From the NCBI GenBank assembly GCA_027575765.1, contig JANBPT010000378.1, positions 1-39,860 of the forward strand: DNA of 39,860 nucleotides, in the 5' to 3' direction. The notes beneath the pieces were generated by a model. The model was given only the letters and a program-made list of their open reading frames with translations. It did no database searches and was not told the DNA's origin. The position numbers and the translations under genes are program-made. The DNA is from Tieghemiomyces parasiticus (lineage: Eukaryota; Kickxellomycota; Dimargaritomycetes; Dimargaritales; Dimargaritaceae). Positions 7,949 through 20,399 of this stretch are shown piece after piece; the stretch's first letter is position 1, and each line of letters begins with the position of its first letter.

Positions 7949-8373
7949 TGTGGAGCCCAGATAGGTATTTGCGCTCCTGAAGATTCCTGAGGGTCGACTC
8001 TATTACATAAGGTCAATGATACCAAATGGAGTTGACTACAAGGACCAGGATAAAAGACTGAGGCCTTGGGAATGGAAACAATTCAATTATGCACCACCGG
8101 CAGATTTCCCACCAGCTGATGGTCTAAATGTCCCATGACCTAGACAACCTATTGTTCTACAACTTTCTGATTTATTATATTTCATACCTTGAAGGGCCAA
8201 TAGGCAAAATGGAAAACCTGGGAGTGGCCAGCCAGGCTATAACTTTATTGAGGATTCAGAATTATTATTTATAGCCTGAGCTCCAGCACCTCTAAGCTCG
8301 GGGAGTGTTTTACCAACCCTGCCTCGGGGTACTATTCTTTATTAAATTTACTATTGCCAAACTACGCTTCACA
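7949..8373 (+). repeat. Solo LTR, Ty3-like family, next to tRNA-Thr
   Basis: This 425-bp unit is a diverged relative of the LTRs of the 12142-17892 element. It begins TGTGGAGCCCAGATAG (compare TGTGGAGACCCAACATAG), shares TTCCTGAGGG, a GGGGAGTGTTTT...CCCTGCCTC block near the end and the terminal CTTCACA. No internal coding region follows, so it is a solo LTR left by LTR-LTR recombination. The flanks are ATTTT (7944-7948) and TTTTT (8374-8378), a near-perfect 5-bp target duplication, though in a low-complexity run. It lies 9 bp upstream of the tRNA and points away from it. Confidence 0.85.
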
Positions 8374-8382
8374 TTTTTGTGT

Positions 8383-8646
8383 TGTTGACACCCCCTTTGG
8401 ATCTTGAAGGTATCTGACTGGCACGTCAACATGGGGAAAGCAAATACAATGGGCAATCCCTTAGTGGGGGAGGCTAGGAATAAGGTTTAAGGTTATGCGC
8501 CTTATGCAGGGGGATGTAGATCCTCCCCCCGCTCACCAGTATAAAAGCAAGCCCACGCAGTTAGGCAAGGGCTTGCCAGCTAATTTTTCCTATCTATTGT
8601 TGATTTATGCTGGTAAAGCTTTAGTTTCTTTATTTCATTGTCAACA
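8383..8646 (+). repeat. Second LTR-like unit, unrelated family
   Basis: The unit is bounded by the perfect 8-bp inverted ends TGTTGACA and TGTCAACA. It contains a TATA-like AGTATAAAAG near 8540, giving an LTR-like layout of about 264 bp. I see no matching target duplication or internal region. The boundaries are inferred from the inverted ends alone and could be a few bases wider. Confidence 0.45.
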
Positions 8647-8770
8647 AACAAACCTCCAAACAATCCCATGCTATTTACTTTTTTGCCACTTATGTAAACA
8701 ATTCCCCCGCCTTGCTGTTAGGCCCAGACCATTGTTGCATATGGCCTAACCAAAGAACTCTGCCCAGAGC

Positions 8771-9178
8771 CAAGCACCACATTTCTGTGTGTGAAGCCAA
8801 GCATGGATCCTCCCTTTGAGGAGCTGTAATAGGCCGCACCTATACAACTATTGAAATAAACAAAAGAAAAGAGACCAGGCAACCTCTGGGAGAGGCCCAG
8901 AAGGGACGGGGGACCAGCCAGGTCCTCCACCAATCAGTGCCAATCATTTATTATAGTCTTAGTATATAAGCCAGGCCCAAGTATGCAACACAGGGCCTGG
9001 CAGCCTATTTCCTGATTTCTGTCCCATAGTGTCATCTGTTGTCACCATGGTGATTGGGAACCACCACATTAGATCATCCCAGGGTAAAGTCCAAGTCTAC
9101 TATTTCAGAGCCACAAATTCTGTGATAGTAGAATAGCCTTTTGGTTATGGTATTAGACTTGGGCCTAATATCAGCACA
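8771..9178 (-). repeat. Dispersed repeat family, copy A
   Basis: The reverse complement matches 20992-~21470 along its length, with indels. Shared blocks include GATATTAGGCCCAAGTC at the start, TTGCATACTTGGGCCTGGC in the middle, and CTATTACAGCTCCTCAAAG and TTGGCTTCACA near the end. On the minus strand it starts TGTGCTGATATTAGG. This fits an LTR of a second retroelement family, but no coding part is visible beside it. Confidence 0.7.
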
Positions 9179-9410
9179 GTCACTATTTTGTTTGTAAAGT
9201 CTAGTACCAATATTCTCTTAAGCTCACTTGTTGGTAAATGTTTCTTGATTTTATTATGAGGTTTTCTCTGTCAATAGTTAACCTATTGAACTTTGTATTA
9301 CAGATTTGGACAGTGCTGGTCCAACTGTATATTCCTGAATTCTCCATTTTGACCCAGAGGTTCTTTTGAAAGCAGGACTGACCCCCAGATATTGGTCTGC
9401 TTTACATTTT

Positions 9411-10000
9411 TTTGGAGCCCTCACTTTGTTAAGTCTCCTGAAGGTTCTTTACCACTTGATATACCTGCCAGTATGTCTTGTGTTGATAGAATAACCTTGC
9501 CACTTGAGTGAATGGCACCTGCAAGGTATCCACCACTGCCACCCATGGAAAGAGGTTCTCCTGTATAGCATGAGAAATTCCACTGTAAAGCATGGGAATT
9601 CCTGCATAGGCTTCCTCATTAGTTACCCTGAACCTACCCTGGCAGTAGCACTTTAAGGTTACATTGCCTTTGATTGTATGGTCACGAGCCCCACCTCTTA
9701 GAGACATCTAAATGGTTGTCCTATTGTCTAGACTTGTTGTTGACTAATCCTGCAACCTGTCCTATTGTCCTTGAAGTTATGTTCTTGAGAAACCATTGCT
9801 CTGTTCCTTTACAGCCCCTGTATTGTCATCCTGGATGAAGTGGTACCAATTGCAGGTATCACCAACACCCTCTTCAACTTGGGCATTACTTTATCATATA
9901 TTTACCCTGAGCATCTGCTCTTCTATGTTCTGGGAGTGTTTCCCCTGCCTTGCCTCTAAGCATCCTTTTAAGTTTCTTATGGTTCATCTGTTGCTTTCTT
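9411..10000 (+). repeat. Degenerate LTR related to the Ty3-like family
   Basis: The start resembles the solo LTR at 7949: TTTGGAGCCCTCA, then CTCCTGAAGGTTC. The end block at 9932-9956 (GGGAGTGTTTCCCCTGCC) matches the GGGAGTGTTTTCCC end block of the intact LTRs. The copy is longer than 445 bp, so it must carry insertions, and its right end is uncertain. Confidence 0.4.
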
Positions 10001-10570
10001 GTCTCATGTATTCTACCTTAATGAAGCTCACCTCCCTTACCTGTTAAGGTTGTGACTAGATTGCTGAAGTATCTGACCTTAGGATCTAATATCTAGGTAA
10101 CCTTCACATTTTGTTGGAATTGGTGAGCAGAACATGTGATACCAAAAGGAAATAGCAAGGCAAATTTGTAAAAATAAAGAGGCTAAGGGCAGGAGGTTGT
10201 AGAGTCAGGGGCGACTGTGAAATTGGCTGGTGAGCACAAGCAGGCAGGCTATGGTATAAACTTTTGCATAGATAATACTATTTAAAATTTGGATAGATCT
10301 AAAGTTTATTTTTGGGTGTTGGTTGCAGAAGTCTAATAATTATAGAGAATGGAATAAGACAATGCTGGTAAAAAGGCTATGATGTAATTTGATCATCCAT
10401 TATTATATCTGGATGACTTCCTGTTAATGCTGGCAAGAGCTCAGTGATAGGCCTGTATTAAACAATTAATGCTTTTAGATTTGGAAACAGACTTGGGCTT
10501 TTTATTTCTTGCAACTGATAATAGAGTCAGGTTATGTGGCCGGGTTTGTGGGATCTGGTCCACAAAATTA

Positions 10571-11976: not shown

Positions 11977-12018
11977 GTCCTAAGTGGAGTTGGTATTGTT
12001 GGTGAGAAAATGAAAAAA

Positions 12019-12135
12019 AGTTGCGGCACCGACTATTCCCAAGTGGTCACCCACCTTAGTACTAATTCGGCTGAATGGTCCTTAACTTCGGAGATCTAAC
12101 GGGATACGGTGCTAACACCATCAGATGGCCGCAAC
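12019..12135 (-). rRNA. 5S rRNA gene, copy 1
   Basis: Read on the minus strand the 117-nt sequence starts GTTGCGGCC and ends GGTGCCGCAAC; the ends pair over 8 bp as helix I. It carries the eukaryotic 5S internal-control core GATCTCCGAAGTTAAG and the conserved GGGTGACC, followed by seven T (12013-12019 in + coordinates) as a Pol III terminator. It differs at only two bases from the copy at 20239-20355. Its upstream flank is split by a retrotransposon starting 6 bp away, and the rest of that flank resumes at 17893. Confidence 0.88.
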
Positions 12136-12136
12136 T

Positions 12137-12141
12137 GACAT
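12137..12141 (+). other. Target-site duplication, left copy (GACAT)
   Basis: The five bases before the 5' LTR are GACAT; the five after the 3' LTR (17893-17897) are GACAA. The uninterrupted 5S unit near 20239 reads GACAA on the equivalent strand, so GACAA is the original target and the left copy has one later change. Confidence 0.75.
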
Positions 12142-12586
12142 TGTGGAGACCCAACATAGTTTGCTCTCTTGAGGGTTCCTGAGGGGACCATGTATAAGGC
12201 TACAACTCTTCCGGCCTTGGAAAAAGGACGAGGGCCACCAGAAGGAAGCTAATAGGCTAACCCAAGGCATGGGGAGATCAGTAAGCGATCTACCAAACCG
12301 CCCACCAATAGTATCCCTAATTTCCCATGACTTGGGTTTCATACTTTTCAATTTTACTTGTTTCAGACTTTTGGATTTTATTTGTTTCATCTCTCAGGTC
12401 GGCAGGAAAATGCCCACCAGCAAGAACAGCCAAAGCAACCGGAGAACCATTAATTATGTTTTCAAATTCTTCTATTGTATTTAAGGCTGAACCAACTGCA
12501 CCTAATGGTTTGGGGAGTGTTTTCCCTACCCTGCCTCAGGGTACCTAGTTCTTATTAAAATCAGGTTTATTTATCTCTTCTTCACA
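12142..12586 (+). repeat. 5' LTR of the Ty3-like element
   Basis: This 445-bp LTR begins TGTGGAGACCC and ends CTTCACA. A TATA-like TGTATAAGG lies near 12191. It is identical to the 3' LTR except at three positions. At two of these (12230, 12300) this copy keeps CpG where the 3' LTR has CpA. Confidence 0.95.
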
Positions 12587-12588
12587 CT

Positions 12589-12600
12589 TGGTAGCAAAGC
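12589..12600 (+). other. Primer-binding site, initiator-tRNA-Met-like
   Basis: TGGTAGCAAAGC starts two bases after the 5' LTR. Its complement ends in GCTACCA, as eukaryotic initiator tRNA-Met 3' ends do (TACCA terminus); yeast Ty3 also uses tRNA-iMet. The exact host tRNA is not in the window, so the primer identity is inferred. Confidence 0.65.
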
Positions 12601-12601
12601 T

Positions 12602-13693
12602 ATGTTTTTCACAAGAAAGGCTCACCCACAAAACCCTAACCCCACTACTGTACAGTACGTGTCATCACCCGCGCTTGCCCACTCACGCCACCATATGCAA
12701 CAAGGTTACGGAATACCACCCAGCGCCAGCCCAACCCCGTCACCGCCCACAAGTGCCGCCAGCTCCTATCACAATGCCATCACCTCAAACACCATGGACC
12801 CGCAAATGCATGCCACGCCCAGGGGCGGACCCACTGACCCAATACCCATGGACCTCACCACCACTCTCCAAGAACTAGCGGGTTCCATTTGCCAGGAACG
12901 CCACAAACCCACAACCCGCACCCCAGGAGTACAACCCGTAACCTTCTCCGGAAACCGAAACGACAACATAGAATATTGGCTGATGACCTTAGAACTTTAC
13001 TTCAAAGCAAACAATATCAGAGACCATGCGCGCAAATACCTGATGGCAGCTAGTGCCCTACGCAATGATGCACAAGGATGGCTCTACCATTTCCGTCGGA
13101 ACACCCCAGTTGTAACCTGGGAGAGTCTGCAAACCGCACTCCAGGAATGCTACGGGGGCATCCAAAACCAGGCAGCCATTTGAGACAAACTAGCCAGCCT
13201 CACACAGCGCGGGGCAGTGGCCGGGTATGCAAAGGAACTTATGTTGCTGGTTGCAGCACACGGAGGCATCACAGATGATGAGGCAATGGACCGGTTCATT
13301 TGAGGCCTCAAACCAGCAATCCGGGCCCAGGTCTCCGCGCAGAATTTTGAGTCCCTCCACAAGGCAGTCATATTTGCGGAACGGTACGACGCGGCACTAT
13401 ATACAAAAGGGAATTGGCAAACCCCAGCCAGCTCGGGTCGCCAAGACACCATTCCCATGGAGTTAGACGCCATCCAGGACCAGGGGCGCCAGACATCAGG
13501 AAGCCACCACAGGCGCACCCGGACGGGTAAAGGGCCTTGCTGCTACACCTGCAACCAGTTTGGACACATTGCAAAGAATTGCCCGCACCGCGCACAGGCT
13601 AACGTAATGTTCTTGGGAAACGCCAGTGGACAGGACGACGACCAGGAAGCAACCTGTCCCACTGCCGAGGCGACACCATTCCTGGAGCAGTAA
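12602..13693 (+). pseudogene. gag: gag of the Ty3-like element (two in-frame TGA)
   Basis: The frame runs from ATG12602 (or ATG12695, in frame) to TAA13691-13693 and is broken by TGA at 13181 and 13301. Gag forms the virus-like particle. The retrotransposon gag domain covers about 12930-13400 (FSGNRNDNIEYWLMTLELYF, then AQGWLYHF and LQTALQECYGG). A CCHC zinc knuckle, C-YT-C-NQFG-H-IAKN-C, lies at about 13540-13585 and binds RNA. Both stops sit where CGA (Arg) is the simplest ancestral codon. The N-terminal ~90 residues are Pro/Thr-rich and probably disordered. Pol is reached through the frameshift site at 13615. Confidence 0.85.
13615..13664 (+). promoter_or_regulatory. -1 programmed ribosomal frameshift signal
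   Basis: The heptamer GGGAAAC (13615-13621) lies in the gag frame exactly as G GGA AAC, the X XXY YYZ form of a -1 slippery site. It falls inside the 91-bp gag/pol overlap (13603-13693). Two bases later, CAGTGGACAGG (13624-13634) can pair with CCTGTCCCACTG (13653-13664): 11 base pairs with one bulged C and an 18-nt loop. Slipping there moves ribosomes into pol. The 2-nt spacer is shorter than usual. Confidence 0.8.
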
Positions 13694-16600
13694 TTGGAGT
13701 TGCAGAGGCAACCCCAGGGTCCGGAAGCCCACAAGAACCCCGGACCGTACTGCTCCTGACATTCACAATGGAAATAAATGGTCAGAAGACCCACTGCCTA
13801 TTAGACAGTGGCTCAACCAACGATTTTGTCTCCAGAAGCTGTGTAAAGCGGTTGGGGTTACCGGTGTTCAAGTGTAGGGAGCCATTGCAAGTGAAGGTAG
13901 CAAATAGTGAAGAATTAGTAATCTGAGAGTATACCCACTTTGAGGGAGTATTGGACAACACTGCTCACTCCATGGCCGCATACATTTTTGATCACCCCAT
14001 GTACGAGGTATTGCTAGGACAGCCGTGGATCCAGCAACAAGACCCGAGAATCAATTGGCACCGTCAAACGGTATCCCTAGAGCCTACAAGGCCAACCCCA
14101 AGAGATCAAGAACCGGCACCGCCCGGTCCCTCCAAGAGACCAGCCCCAGAACAAGCGCATCCCACCGAGAGACCAAGGCCAGCAGTACTACAAGCAATGG
14201 GGCACGCCACAACCAAGTCCCGGGCGACCAACTTACCAGGGGTATACTACATCCTTGATCAGGGGGTGGCACCCCCCAGAGGACATTACAACAAGGATGC
14301 TGGCACGGACCTAGCAAGTGCAGAAGACATCACAATCCATCCTGGGAAGACGTGTCGGGTACACCTAGGCATTTGGACCAAACCGCCAGCTGCAATGTAC
14401 CTACAACTCCAACTCCAATTGAGCTGGGCTACCAAGGGCCTGGTGCTAGGGGGAGGAGTAATTGATAGCGGGTATTGAGGAGTAGTTAGAGCAATCCTAA
14501 CCAACACGTCAAATCAGGACATCACCATCCAAAGGGGTGACTATGTAGTGCAGGCGGTGCTCCACAACGTGCCCGGGCTGCCGTGGCAGCCGCGCCAGGA
14601 CCTCAACCAGTCCGACCAAAGAGAGCAAGGCTTTGGCTCATCAGAGGCAGAGGCCAAATTCCAACTAATATTGGCGACACAGTGCAAACGTGAGGCACGA
14701 GACCCCACACAAAGGACTTACCTACTGGCCATCCGGAGCATCAAGGCCAAGATGGAACAGCCAGCCAAGGAGGTGCCGGCCCCAGTCAAGGACATCATTG
14801 GGACATTTGCCACCATGGTATTTGGCGAACTACCAAAAGGCTTACCACCGCCGCGGGTAGTGGACCACCGGATTGAAACCACCACCAACAGCCCAGTGGC
14901 CAGTGCACCGTACCCACTGGCACAGAAGGACCTGGCAGAACTCTGGACGCAGATCAACAACTACCTTAGCCGCAGATGGATCCAGCCAGGGTCCTCACCG
15001 TACGGGGCCCCGGTGATCTTTGTTCCTAAAAAAGGTGGCACGCAACAAATGTGTGTGGACTATAGGGCGTTAAATAAGGTAACGGTCAAGAATTGATATC
15101 CCATTCCCAACATCTTGGAAAGCTTTGCACGGTTGGCAGGCGCAAGGATTTTCTCCAAGATTGACCTCAAGACCGGGTACCACCAGATCCAAATCCACCC
15201 CCCAGACATCCCAAAAACGGCGTTCACAACCCGCTATGGTCAGTACGAGTTCCTAGTCATGCCATTCGGACTTACCAATGCCCCAGCAACGTTCCAAACG
15301 CTGATGAACTCAATCCTGCGGCTGTTCCTGGACACGTGTGCAATGGTGTACTTGGACAACATCCTTGTGTTTAGTGCCAACGTAGAGGATCACGCCAAGG
15401 ATCTGCAGAAGGTGCTCAAGCAATTAGAGAAGAACAAGTTAGTGGCCAACCTGAAGAAATCGGAGTTTTGTCGCACCCAGATTGAGTACCTGGGCCACCT
15501 GATCTCTGACCGAGGTGTGGAAGTTGACCCTGCAAAGACACAAGCCATGCGCAAGTACCCGGCGCCCAAGACCGTCTGACAGCTGCAGGCCTTCTTAGGA
15601 CTTACCAACTACTATCAAACATTCATCCCGGAGTACGCCGAGACCGCCACACCATTAACCGACCTGCTTAGGGGGAAGCCAAAGGACATCAAAAGGACGG
15701 AGGAGTGCGAGTTAGCATTTGAAGCACTGAAGGGTAAGCTGGTCAGTCCGCCGGTGCTGATATACCCTGATTTCACGCAACCGTTCACCGTACAAACCAA
15801 CGCCTCCACAATCTCAATTGGAGCCATCCTGCTCCAAGACCTAGGAGAAGGGAACCAGCCGGTGGCTTACCTGTCGAAACGGTTAAACCCAGCACAAGCA
15901 AGGTATCCGGTATTTGAGCTGGAGCTGTTCGCAATTGTGTACGCCCTCAAGGCCTGGCAACAGTACCTGTATGGACAGGAGTTCACGGTGCAGACAGACC
16001 ACAAGTCATTGCAGTTCCTGAAGTCAGTCAAAAAGCTAACACCAAGACTGTACCAATGGCTGGAAGACCTACTGGAGTTTGACCCAGATGTGGAGTACCT
16101 ACTGGGAAAACGACAGGTAATTGCAGATGTGATCTCAAGAGCGGTGGACCCAACGGTAGCAAACATTGAGGTGGAAGGAGATGAGTGGACCAAGGAGCTG
16201 AGAAGGTACCTACAGCAGAAGCCCTGGTCAAGAGGAGCGACCAGCAAGGTGAAGGATAGAGTAGTGAAAGAAGCAGGACAGTTCAGATTAGCGGACAAAC
16301 TATTGACCAGACTAGTAGATGGAGTGGAAGTAGCAGTAGTAAGAAGGGAGGGACGCCTGGAGGAGATAAGGCACTACCATGACAGACAAGGACACGGGGG
16401 GATAAAAGATACCATTGTAAGAATGAGGGCAAACGTATGGTGGCCTAAGTGGCAGAAGGAAGTCAAGGAATACATCCGACACTGCCCAAGGTGCCAGGTG
16501 TACGGACCAGACTACAAGCCTCAGGACACCTCGCGCTACCCCTTAGACCCACCACTGTCCCCATTTGTTAGATGGAGCATTGACACTGTGGGCCTGCTAC

Positions 16601-17435
16601 CAACAATGCCCCGTGGGAACAAATACATTATCACAGTGCTAGAACACGCCACAGGTTTTCCAGTATGTAAGGCGGTACCAGGCACCATCACGGAAAGGGT
16701 GGCGGAGTTCCTGTACAATGACATACTCTGTGAGTACGGCAGACCAAATGAGCTACTCTTGGACAGGGGGCCGCAGTTCTTAAGTGACCTAATGAGCCAA
16801 TTTACGGAGAGGCAAAGGATCCACCACCTGCGGACCTTGGGGTACCACCCCCAGACAAATGGAAGACTGGAACGTTTTCATGGCACCCTGAAGGAGATGA
16901 TTAGGTGCACGGTGCCCCACCCGGAACAGGACTGGGACAAATGGCTGCCCACCATCCAAATGTTCCTACGGGCCAAACCGTCCCAATGGACAGGGAGGGC
17001 ACCATTCTCCCTACTGTATGGAGTGAAAATGCTCCTGCCAGGGGAACCCTTACAGCCAACGTTTGACCGGGAGTTAGACATTGACTACCAACAGGCGGAT
17101 GTGACCCCTTGCCTAGCTACACTACAACGCCTAAGGCAAACGGAGAACATAGCAAGGCACCAGTGGAATACAAAAAATAAGGAGGCGGTGGGCCACATAA
17201 AGACGTTCCAGATAGGGGAAGCAGTCCTGGTGAGGAATTACACGGCGGGGTCACTAGCACCAAAATGGTTTGGACCGTTTAGGGTGACAGGGGCACTAAA
17301 GTACAACACCTACACCTTGGCTACCCTCAACGGGCAACCAGTACGGGCGACCTCAATCAAACGGATGAAGAAGGCACACCTCACGCCAATGACCACCAGG
17401 AACTGGAATCTGCCAGCCCATTTTCGTCAAGCCTT

Positions 17436-17447
17436 GGAGGGGGAGAG
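17436..17447 (+). other. Polypurine tract
   Basis: GGAGGGGGAGAG directly abuts the 3' LTR, the expected place and composition for the plus-strand primer of an LTR retrotransposon. Confidence 0.85.
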
Positions 17448-17892
17448 TGTGGAGACCCAACATAGTTTGGTCTCTTGAGGGTTCCTGAGGGGACCATGTA
17501 TAAGGCTACAACTCTTCCGGCCTTGGAAAAAGGACAAGGGCCACCAGAAGGAAGCTAATAGGCTAACCCAAGGCATGGGGAGATCAGTAAGCGATCTACC
17601 AAACCACCCACCAATAGTATCCCTAATTTCCCATGACTTGGGTTTCATACTTTTCAATTTTACTTGTTTCAGACTTTTGGATTTTATTTGTTTCATCTCT
17701 CAGGTCGGCAGGAAAATGCCCACCAGCAAGAACAGCCAAAGCAACCGGAGAACCATTAATTATGTTTTCAAATTCTTCTATTGTATTTAAGGCTGAACCA
17801 ACTGCACCTAATGGTTTGGGGAGTGTTTTCCCTACCCTGCCTCAGGGTACCTAGTTCTTATTAAAATCAGGTTTATTTATCTCTTCTTCACA
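17448..17892 (+). repeat. 3' LTR of the Ty3-like element
   Basis: This is the 445-bp partner of 12142-12586 with three differences. G17470 replaces C; A17536 and A17606 replace G, each converting CpG to CpA. The pol frame ends inside it at 17478. It is followed by GACAA (17893-17897), the right target duplication. Confidence 0.95.
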
Positions 17893-20161
17893 GACAATGC
17901 AGAGGCAGAACTATTGTTAATGTTGCAGAGAAACGAAACAAATACCTCTGATTGGTCAATGCCATGTGCCAATTAGCTGATCATTCATATATGCACCATT
18001 GCCTAGATTAGCTGCAACTATTGGATCTGTACTTGGCTGTTTTACAAGTAGTGTCTCTATTATACATATACCTACACAACTTTTTTTAGGAATGTTCAGT
18101 CTAATGGTTATTTATAATGAAGAACATCAGCTATTATGGTACTAGTGCACTATAGGATAATAATAGGATATAGTATAATCCCAGAAAGAATTAAAATATC
18201 ATGGTACAGAATAAGTGGGCAAATGGCAAATGGCAAAGGCATGAAGTCATGGAAAGGGCTAATTTTGTGGATGTAAGATGGATCTCAATCCACTAGGCTT
18301 CAAGTTGTTTGTATGTCTGTGATTGCGGGTGTTAGCTGCAGGCATTCTATTACTGTCTCAAAGACTAACATAATCATGACAGGTGGAGACCCAAGGACTG
18401 GCTTACCAAGCTGGAGGGTAAGGTAATGAGGAGTGAAGATACAATTAGAGAAAAGTTTATTGGCTATATACAGCTAGTGGGTGTGCAGGATTATTGGGGC
18501 TCTGGTTGATTGGCCTGGTGGTTGGTTGTGGTGACTTGGTGAGCAGCTGCAGGTTATTTAACCAGACCAATAGATAATGCTAGAGAGACAAGGTGTTCCT
18601 GTGAGGTGTTGTCATGACTTGCAGGGCTTTTAGTTGTTGGCTTCTGGAGGCTGACAATGGCTAATGCCAGCTTATTCCAGCCACACAGTAGGACAAATTA
18701 TCCTAAGGATAGCAGGATAAAGGAAAGTGGACAGGGGGATTATTAAACTAGGAACAGGCAATTCAAGTCCCCAATTTGCTTAGGCAAGGGCCCCAAGAAG
18801 TACCAGTTCCTGTTTAGGCAGGGTTGGCATTCCTTAGTCCTTTGTACCCTGCAGAGTAGGGTGGGAATGGTAGGCACAGTTATGAGTATTCTAGTGGTTT
18901 TCCTATCCTGTTAGCAACTGTGGTGCCATATACAGGGGTGGTAAGGCTGTGACCAGGAGGTCAGCAATGTCAATCCTCTCAGTGGTGGGCACCCATTAGG
19001 CGGATTTCTGGCCAGTACAAGGTTGGAGATCCCATATGGGACGTAAGAGCACAAACATGGATATACAGGCCATTGGCTGTGCATTGGTTGAAAATACAGG
19101 GGGGGGGGTGATTAAGTGTAATGGTCTAGGCCTGCTCCCTCAGAAGGGGGAGTAGATGTCCTTGCTACCAATGGTGGGGGGCCAATGTGTTGACTGTGGC
19201 TGGTGGTAATACCTTGGTGCTGCCAGACATTCACTAGCTGGGTTTCACCTGCAGCACAGCTTTCATCAGGGCTGGTAGATAGTACACAGGTCTTTCAGGT
19301 ACTGGCTGAAGTATAGGGGAAACCCCCAATGATAAGATCTCATGTGGGAATGGTCATAAGGTGTTCCACCTACTTTGCAAAGCAGCCTAATCCAAGGTGT
19401 AGCACTTTCAACCTTGGTAAACATAGCAGGCAGAGGTTTGGTGGGCTGGTTTGTGCCAAGGTGGTGTAATTATATATATATATATATATTACTTTTAATG
19501 CCTGAATATCCATTAGGATGTCAGACTTCTTATAGCTGCAGGATAGTGTGTGAAGTGTGCCATTTGGCAAAGTACAGTCAAGGACAAATATAGAATCTCC
19601 TACAAATGCAGATAGGACTTTGAGGATGTGGAGCCAAGGGTAGCAAACCCCAAGGTGCAAATGGATAGGAGCACAGACAAGTATTCACAGAGAAAAGTTG
19701 GGTCCTATTAAAATGAGATAAATCATAATTAATAGCACAAGAGAGATAGAGTCATCAAACAGAGTAGAGCAGGCTAGTATAAATGTATAATCAGCATACA
19801 CTATGGGATTGCATTGTAGGAAACACTGCCTAACCCTGAACTAAGCCCTTGGATATAGATTTCAGATTTCTGGTCTAAATAAAATCTAAGAGCATATTGA
19901 ATCCTCATTGTCTAAATGACTCTTCCACTTTAAAAGTTCTTGCCTGAAACCCTTCTCCCCAGCCAAGTCCTACATACTGTCCTTCTTTTAAGGTAACATT
20001 GTAATCTAATATATCTTAATGAGGAAAAGCTATTGTGGGTACAAAGTAATCTACCTTTAGGTGTTAAGGACAGTGCTTATGACCATATCTATCACTTGAA
20101 AGGTTGTTAATTAGGTAGCCGGCCTAATCATAAAAGCCAACTGGCATGGCTGGTAGATTCG
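17893..20161. other. Displaced 5S upstream flank, then CpG-depleted spacer
   Basis: 17893-~17968 is the upstream flank of 5S copy 1, displaced by the retrotransposon; it matches the reverse complement of 20162-20238. Beyond that the DNA is AT-rich and almost free of CpG (none in 18001-18300). A (TA)n run sits at 19470-19489. No gene is supported. Confidence 0.6.
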
Positions 20162-20399
20162 TACATGGAACTGACCAATCAGAGGTATTCGTTTCGTTTC
20201 TCTGCAACATTAAGAATAGTCCTGCCCCTGCATTGTCAGTTGCGGCCATCTGATGGTGTTAGCACCGTATCCCGTTAGATCTGCGAAGTTAAGGACCATT
20301 CAGCCGATTTAGTACTAAGGTGGGTGACCACTTGGGAATAGTCGGTGCCGCAACTTTTAACTTTTGCTCAGGTGACGATACCAACTCTACTTAGGACTA
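20162..20399 (+). repeat. Dispersed 5S unit: gene plus conserved flanks
   Basis: Similarity between the two 5S loci extends beyond the gene: about 75 bp upstream (CTGACCAATCAGAGGTATT, then a GTTTCGTTTCTCTGCAAC-type block) and about 45 bp downstream (ACCAACTCTACTTAGGAC-type). It then stops abruptly on both sides. The pre-insertion unit is therefore about 240 bp. The partner copy is 11977-12141 plus 17893-17968 in opposite orientation. Confidence 0.75.
20239..20355 (+). rRNA. 5S rRNA gene, copy 2
   Basis: This 117-nt copy starts GTTGCGGCC and ends GGTGCCGCAAC, with an 8-bp helix I. It carries GATCTGCGAAGTTAAG and GGGTGACC, with a TTTT terminator at 20355-20358. It differs from copy 1 at two sites; in the core this copy has GATCTGCG where copy 1 has the more usual GATCTCCG. 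No transposon interrupts its 5' flank, so it shows the empty target site. It could be functional or a recent pseudogene. Confidence 0.85.

What the first reader, a model, noticed from the sequence alone, without database searches (positions are those of the whole stretch)
12019..12160. Ty3-like retrotransposon inserted 6 bp upstream of a 5S rRNA gene, with the empty site visible in a second 5S copy
The 5' LTR starts at 12142; the 5S gene (minus strand) starts at 12135. The 5S upstream flank resumes after the 3' LTR at 17893 and matches the uninterrupted flank at 20162-20238. This proves insertion into a pre-existing 5S unit, with target GACAA at -2 to -6. Yeast Ty3 integrates at Pol III start sites through TFIIIB/TFIIIC. 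Finding the same geometry at a 5S gene, in a family with a dUTPase, suggests a Pol III-guided integrase in this lineage.
Basis: partly seen in the sequence, partly recalled or inferred. Interest (0 to 1): 0.85.

Follow-up and report, generated by a model that had tools for sequence, protein, structure and literature searches.

The report
One-way jumping genes at Pol III genes
In this fungus several related virus-like jumping genes land at almost exactly the same spot just in front of tRNA and 5S rRNA genes, one group nearly always facing away from the gene and its sister group facing along it, so the copies pile up in stacks.

Summary
A 5.75-kb Ty3/Gypsy element (LTRs 12142-12586 and 17448-17892) sits 5 bp upstream of a 5S gene; the second 5S copy shows the empty site. 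Correction: the duplication is 4 bp (GACA) plus an extra T, not GACAA.

The LTR family has 19 assignable insertions. All 19 are at the 5' end of a 5S or tRNA gene: 17 directly (4-5 bp from 5S, 9-10 bp from tRNA), 2 displaced by one younger LTR. Eighteen of 19 point away from the gene.

Their sister clade H does the opposite (8 of 8 run with the gene). A more distant family, I, shows both (5:3). Insertions reuse one position, so solo LTRs stack head-to-tail with the same 4-bp spacer; the youngest family is usually nearest the gene.

Pol III start-site targeting is known (Ty3, Tj1). Fixed opposite polarity, a polarity flip between sister clades and such stacking were not found in print (open-licence papers only).

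The parts
12018..12136 (-). 5S rRNA gene whose upstream flank was interrupted
   Evidence: Rfam RF00001, 96.6 bits
12137..12140 (.). left copy of the target duplication, GACA
12141..12141 (.). one extra T between the left duplication and the 5' LTR; absent from the empty site
12142..12586 (+). 5' LTR (family A), its U3 end facing the 5S start
   Evidence: direct repeat, TG...CA ends, 442 of 445 identical to the 3' LTR
12589..12608 (+). primer-binding-site-like word TGGTAGCAAAGCTA..., found after 5' LTRs of families A, B, C, D, E, H and I
   Evidence: function inferred
12602..13183 (+). gag-like reading frame
   Evidence: weak Ty3_capsid match, E 5e-5, under the curated cut-off
13951..14478 (+). 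reading frame ending in the first part of a dUTPase domain
   Evidence: PF00692, 22.9 bits, cut-off 22, profile 9-72 of 129
15115..15579 (+). reverse transcriptase piece
   Evidence: RVT_1, E 3.1e-31; the upstream pol frame is broken up
15754..17478 (+). RNase H and integrase reading frame, 574 aa, open
   Evidence: RNase H, H2C2 zinc finger, rve; Ty3 Gag-Pol 7q5b E 5e-46; AF2 model of residues 151-574, pLDDT 78.9
17448..17892 (+). 3' LTR (family A)
17893..17896 (.). right copy of the target duplication, GACA
17897..17973 (.). displaced 5S upstream flank, including the CCAAT-like CTCTGATTGGTC at 17946-17957
   Evidence: inverted repeat with 20157-20240 at 89%
20157..20237 (.). uninterrupted flank (empty site) of the second 5S gene
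20238..20356 (+). second 5S rRNA gene
   Evidence: Rfam RF00001, 101.8 bits
7867..7939 (-). tRNA-Thr gene with its own LTR stack
7949..8373 (+). solo LTR, D type, 9 bp upstream of tRNA-Thr, diverging from it
   Evidence: ends read by eye
8378..8781 (+). solo LTR, diverged C type, next in the same stack (spacer TTTT)
   Evidence: ends read by eye
8790..9406 (+). LTR, B type, third in the stack (8-bp spacer beginning TTTC)
   Evidence: outer end approximate

Best explanation
These are Ty3/Gypsy LTR retrotransposons whose integrase is guided to the Pol III initiation complex. Shown by sequence: insertion 4-5 bp upstream of 5S and mostly 8-13 bp upstream of mature tRNA 5' ends; a 4-bp target duplication; a nearly fixed polarity that differs between clades; repeated use of one position, which builds head-to-tail stacks of solo LTRs. 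Inferred: the integrase docks on TFIIIB, as in yeast Ty3; the intasome binds it asymmetrically, so that families A, B, C and E leave their U3 end at the gene and family H leaves its U5 end there; recombination between LTRs leaves solo LTRs; TFIIIB re-forms at the same place because it is set by the gene's internal promoter, so the next element enters between the gene and the last LTR.
For: Family A: 19 of 19 assignable insertions at Pol III genes, 17 direct, 18 of 19 divergent. Exact 4-bp duplication in 13 of 17. A prediction was tested: 5' ends of eight chosen related elements were placed from their integrase positions and the layout of the window element; a Pol III gene lay 4-12 bp from the 5' LTR in six, and the other two proved to be family H. 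For one H element (C160) a gene was then predicted beside the 3' LTR (note), and a tRNA-Leu was found 9 bp away; the other (C37) has a tRNA 11 bp from its 3' LTR. Direct orientation over listed genes: A 17, B 3, C 8, E 5 all divergent; H 8 of 8 with the gene; Fisher P 1e-8. In a tree of the stop-free frames A, B, C and E form one clade with H as sister, both supports 1.000. Stacks with a constant spacer, e.g. ATAT between six successive LTRs in L029.
Against: One family-A copy (C37, displaced, so not in the 33) is inverted. Four of 17 duplications are imperfect. TFIIIB contact is untested, and the integrase lacks the C-terminal chromodomain that helps Ty3 bind TFIIIB. Polarity could reflect differential survival rather than docking. 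At C645 an integrase frame lies in the opposite sense to the LTR stack it abuts, perhaps an older inverted element. Many B, C, E, H and I matches could not be assigned to a gene, because the Pol III gene lists are partial. Solo LTRs carry no direct record of the integration event.
Confidence: 0.78

Rival explanations
1. Targeting to Pol III start sites is real, but integration is blind to orientation; copies in the wrong orientation were lost by selection, for example because LTR transcription disturbs the Pol III gene.
For: All data are surviving copies in one assembly. The Tj1 authors raise the same caveat (PMC4600332, passages).
Against: H occupies the same kind of site in the opposite polarity and family I occurs in both. 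An inverted A copy persists. Selection would have to act through LTR content in opposite senses in two sister clades.
Confidence: 0.2
2. Insertion is not targeted; copies survive only beside Pol III genes because these are safe places in a compact genome.
For: No direct evidence here; a safe-site effect is a general idea. The placement of the distant LTR element L093 away from Pol III genes rather shows that other places tolerate insertions.
Against: Survival cannot explain precision to a few bp, repeated use of one position, or 0 compared LTRs within 60 bp of the 3' ends of listed genes.
Confidence: 0.02
3. The stacks arose by duplication of whole gene-plus-LTR segments, so insertions are not independent.
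For: The genome has paralogous 5S units.
Against: Directly placed family-A copies adjoin six 5S genes and tRNAs of nine isotypes (Gln, Ser, Cys, Glu, Val, Lys, Arg, Pro, Met), mostly with different target words.
Confidence: 0.05

Closest known systems
Ty3 of Saccharomyces cerevisiae (Metaviridae)
   Same: Ty3/Gypsy domain order; integrase frame's best PDB sequence match (7q5b, E 5e-46); insertion a few bp upstream of Pol III starts, with strand transfer at -6/-2 (PMC8632968, passages)
   Different: Ty3: 5-bp duplication, both orientations through Tfc1 (PMC5911963, passages), and a vestigial chromodomain. Here: 4 bp, 18 of 19 in one orientation, and only a 34-residue low-confidence tail after the CTD
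Tj1 of Schizosaccharomyces japonicus
   Same: Fixed orientation at Pol III genes; insertion just upstream of tRNA genes; also hits 5S (PMC4600332, passages)
   Different: Tj1 runs WITH the gene, like clade H here and opposite to A/B/C/E; 5-bp duplication; scattered at 5S (-3 to +41), whereas the 11 direct 5S insertions all have a gap of 4-5 bp
Yarrowia Tyl3, Tyl6, Ylt1 and solo LTRs
   Same: Ty3/Gypsy elements at tRNA starts, one LTR at a 5S 5' end (PMC5014426 passages and section 40; PMC5911963 passages)
   Different: 5-bp duplication in Tyl3; the passages and section read mention neither fixed polarity nor ordered stacks
Dictyostelium DGLT-A
   Same: Ty3/Gypsy element about 15 bp upstream of tRNA genes, without a chromodomain (PMC5006619, passages)
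   Different: Inserts in either orientation (PMC5911963, passages)
PosPlaTy3-5 of Postia placenta
   Same: dUTPase between protease and RT (PMC2864245, passages)
   Different: From a survey of chromodomain Gypsy elements; no Pol III targeting mentioned in the passages read

Membership tests
Ty3/Gypsy (Metaviridae) LTR retrotransposons | LTRs, RT and RNase H upstream of integrase | tested here: met
   protease not detected by Pfam
Ty3/Gypsy (Metaviridae) LTR retrotransposons | HHCC zinc finger and DDE catalytic triad in the integrase | tested here: met
   H59, H64, C94, C97, D127, D187, E223 invariant in 24 aligned sequences; their roles as HHCC and DDE are recalled
Pol III-start-targeting retrotransposons (Ty3 type) | most copies within about 20 bp upstream of Pol III genes | tested here: met
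   17 of 19 direct, 2 of 19 displaced in the same array
Pol III-start-targeting retrotransposons (Ty3 type) | dependence on TFIIIB (Brf1/TBP) | not testable with these tools
   needs biochemistry
Ty3 proper | 5-bp target duplication | tested here: not met
   4 bp in 13 of 17, of which 1 also matches over 5 bp
Ty3 proper | insertion in both orientations | tested here: not met
   family A 18:1; A/B/C/E direct 33:0
Ty3 proper | chromodomain-like module after the integrase CTD | tested here: not met
   only residues 391-424, mostly low confidence, follow the CTD in the model; the Ty3 module spans 66 residues, 446-511 (PMC8632968, passages)
Tj1 type | fixed orientation along the gene | tested here: not met
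   A/B/C/E are the reverse; clade H meets it, 8 of 8
Chromoviruses | C-terminal chromodomain | tested here: not met
   no chromodomain family listed at E 0.1; model ends after the CTD

The most novel reading that the evidence does not exclude
The polarity with which an intasome docks on the Pol III initiation complex is an evolvable trait of the element. In one genome a clade with its U3 end at the gene, a sister clade with its U5 end at the gene, and a family that does both all share the same target position. Pol III genes therefore act as one-way recorders, in which each new element is added next to the gene and the stack reads as a dated history of retrotransposon invasions.
Probability: 0.5. 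Interest if true: 0.78.

Novelty: new variant of a known kind. Interest (0 to 1): 0.66.

Why it matters
How retroviral-type intasomes choose a site is understood for few elements, and why Tj1 inserts in one orientation while Ty3 uses both is open. Here two sister clades, with integrase frames 40-44% identical, sit at the same kind of site with opposite polarity, so comparing them could show which surfaces set docking direction. The stacks also offer a relative clock: insertion order can be read off the DNA, as with CRISPR spacers, in a little-studied branch of fungi. They show that the front of a Pol III gene can be hit repeatedly while the gene stays in place.

Tried and rejected
I considered a chance coincidence at one 5S gene and rejected it (19 of 19 copies). 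I considered dUTPase as relevant to targeting and dropped it, since it is present in other Gypsy elements. I first took all LTR types as U3-proximal; coding strand, PBS and PPT showed that my library sequences H and I were reversed, so H runs with the gene. My first array parser mis-set some units starting TGTGTG, and the BLAST merge lost the family-A unit in L004 and fused units in L020. The direct counts do not rest on either.

Order test, told in full. Family A is nearer the gene than other types in 22 of 24 pairs; the exceptions are one H and one G. By nearest-copy identity the nearer unit is the more alike in 42 of 56 pairs; without A it is 25 of 37 (one-sided P 0.024, pairs not independent), and the rank correlation without A is not significant (P 0.14). 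So the youngest family is convincingly gene-proximal, while the order of the older ones is only weakly supported. One search counted 84 divergent to 2; 13 of the 84 are library representatives, and H, G, F, I, K and M are divergent there only in library orientation. I rest the claim.

Rows dropped or limits. 'Direct' there means a gap of -3 to 60 bp; 42 of the 46 rows have gaps of 4-11 bp, and the other four are 12, 13 and 35 (C; the last match is cut at its start) and 51 (I; cut at its end). One search leaves out the two displaced A copies (C1074 divergent, C37 inverted). Three family-A LTRs cut by contig ends could not be assigned. Two tRNA-Val genes (C686, C138) were found by ARAGORN only, not by Rfam at its cut-off. 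The Pol III gene lists are lower bounds (47 of 3366 and 63 of 1334 candidates scored), so a genome-wide occupancy cannot be given. Of the I copies (40 matches) eight insertions were given an orientation; for the two in C414 no gene was seen and the sense was taken from the C-type LTRs in the same stack. The one distant element used as a control (L093) is n=1; L092 showed no clear element. Foldseek and VIA matches list PFV integrase above or level with Ty3, so the fold does not single out Ty3. No Ty3 or Tj1 sequence and no family-I frame was in the tree.

Full report
WHAT WAS CLAIMED. A Ty3-like element was said to lie 6 bp upstream of a 5S gene, with the empty site in a second 5S copy, and to suggest Pol III-guided integration. 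The refuting test named was the position of other copies of the LTR.

THE OBSERVATION. Rfam finds 5S genes at 12018-12136(-) and 20238-20356(+). The LTRs are 445 bp, TG...CA, at 12142-12586 and 17448-17892, differing at 3 of 445 positions, so the insertion is fairly recent. The left flank aligns to the second 5S unit over 99 bp at 98% and the right flank over 75 bp at 92%. They overlap there by exactly GACA. The target duplication is best read as 4 bp with one extra T, not GACAA. Thirteen of 17 family copies with both flanks readable have an exact 4-bp duplication.

THE HOST. One host protein of the window (EFR3) is closest, apart from itself, to Dimargaris cristalligena (50% identity), D. verticillata (44%) and D. 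xerosporica (39%); the other hits listed are at 37% or less. I infer the order Dimargaritales (Kickxellomycotina) from this one protein. The genome has no name here: 46.5 Mb, 1363 contigs.

THE ELEMENT. Gag-like frame, dUTPase, RT, RNase H, integrase. The pol frame upstream of RNase H is broken into pieces; the RNase H-integrase frame is open for 574 aa. Its best sequence match in the PDB is Ty3 Gag-Pol, entry 7q5b, the Ty3 intasome on a TFIIIB-bound tRNA gene. An AlphaFold2 model of residues 151-574 (pLDDT 78.9) shows helices of the zinc-finger region, the catalytic core, a linker helix and a five-stranded CTD, taken here as SH3-like, then a 34-residue tail, mostly of low confidence. That is too short for the 66-residue chromodomain that Ty3 has there (PMC8632968, passages).

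Own-genome search gave 46 LTR matches, of which 21 are full copies at 94% or better. They belong to 19 insertions (two have both LTRs). Rfam and ARAGORN on the flanks (two tRNA-Val genes by ARAGORN only), with reading by eye of the two apparent exceptions, place all 19 at Pol III genes: 6 at 5S with a gap of 4-5 bp and 11 at tRNA with a gap of 9-10 bp, plus two separated from their tRNA by exactly one other LTR bearing the same (C1074) or nearly the same (C37) target word. Eighteen of 19 diverge from the gene (P 8e-5); C37 is inverted. No compared LTR of the seven types lies within 60 bp of the 3' end of a listed Pol III gene.

STACKS. Several Pol III genes carry solo LTRs head-to-tail, neighbours separated by the same 4-bp word. 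L029 has six, with ATAT between each; L013 (GATG), L033 (GAAT) and C414 (TGTT) are others, in which an occasional outer spacer differs by a base. Successive insertions therefore used the same position, between the gene and the previous LTR. Among the 30 best-scoring 5S genes 9 carry one of my LTR types directly at the 5' end. Of 20 tRNA genes that I picked, one was set aside as probably mitochondrial and 8 of 19 carry one. That pick was not fully blind: C1208 and C37 already had an integrase nearby; without them it is 6 of 17. The window's own tRNA-Thr has such a stack, which the finding does not mention.

POLARITY BY CLADE. Protein search of the genome found related integrases. I placed the 5' ends of eight chosen elements from integrase coordinates and the layout of the window element and fetched them. 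Six had a Pol III gene 4-12 bp from the 5' LTR: C557, C527, C948, C647 and C1136 with C- or B-type LTRs, and C521 with an I-type LTR. The other two (C160, C37) had no gene there. Their H-type 5' LTR is followed by other LTRs, and the gene lies at the other end: a tRNA 11 bp from the 3' LTR of C37 and, predicted first (note) and then found, a tRNA-Leu 9 bp from the 3' LTR of C160, with TGTG on both sides. So these H elements run with the gene. Genome-wide matches against listed genes give direct insertions A 17, B 3, C 8, E 5, all divergent, and H 8 of 8 with the gene (Fisher P 1e-8). Family I, with integrases 34-37% identical to A, shows 5 divergent (C521, L003, L029 unit 5, two in C414) and 3 with the gene (L014, L029 unit 3, C1136:1071). 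For C414 no gene was seen, and for C1136 the gene lies beyond other units; there the sense is read from the stack. One more I match, at C575, was counted as with the gene but is cut short and is not in the 5:3. A tree of stop-free integrase frames (A two copies, E, C, B, H one each, plus database relatives) puts A, E, C and B in one clade with H as sister, both with support 1.000. Types G, F, K and M keep a constant direction in what I read, but their true 5' end could not be assigned.

CONTROL. A distant LTR element in the same genome (L093, integrase about 22% identical over the alignment) has a 4-bp duplication (ATAA, read by eye) and no tRNA or 5S gene within its 8.5-kb stretch. So Pol III placement is not a property of every LTR element here, but this is a single case.

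MECHANISM. Shown: place, precision, duplication length, polarity, reuse of one position. Inferred from Ty3 (PMC8632968, passages): the integrase recognises TFIIIB, positioned by promoter elements inside the gene, which explains why one kind of site serves 5S and many tRNA types and survives each insertion. In Ty3 the TFIIIC subunit Tfc1 enables both orientations (PMC5911963, passages). The simplest reading of the fixed polarity is that these integrases lack or have replaced that contact, and that the A/B/C/E and H clades lock the intasome in opposite senses. Selection on survivors remains the main rival.

PRIOR ART. Pol III-start targeting by Ty3/Gypsy elements is established (Ty3, Tj1, Yarrowia elements, DGLT-A). 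Fixed orientation was reported for Tj1, along the gene, and its authors in 2015 knew of no other wild-type case (PMC4600332, passages). I found no report of fixed divergent orientation, of a polarity flip between sister clades, or of single-site ordered stacks; searches, and passages of PMC7175516, PMC10085805 and PMC10886601. The library holds open-licence PMC papers only, so most older sigma-element work is not covered.

Noticed in passing
L031-L058 upstream of 5S genes; window 17946-17957 and 20173-20184: Most uninterrupted 5S genes share a CCAAT-like word around TGATTGG, about 55-65 bp upstream of +1; LTR insertion pushes it hundreds of bp to kilobases away.
   Followed up: no
window 12589-12608 and 12 other places: Seven LTR families share a primer-binding-like word TGGTAGC[A/G]AAGCTA that could form a small hairpin; which tRNA, if any, primes is unclear.
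   Followed up: partly
L029:1127-1354 and 1817-2052: Two copies of family I in one stack lie in opposite orientations with the same ATAT spacer.
   Followed up: yes
window 12141: Extra T between the target duplication and the 5' LTR; a one-T offset is also reported for Yarrowia Tyl3 (PMC5014426, passages).
   Followed up: no
G000:C645:32135-34249: An integrase frame on the + strand abuts the outer end of a minus-strand LTR stack; it may be an older element of opposite polarity or a truncation.
   Followed up: no
window 7949-10108: tRNA-Thr carries its own stack of at least three LTRs (D, C, B types), all diverging, with a D1-type piece further out at 9914-10108.
   Followed up: partly
window 1935-34689: Host genes near the finding by Pfam: LSM, Fis1, an SH3-domain protein, kinesin (2248-aa frame), EFR3.
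   Followed up: partly
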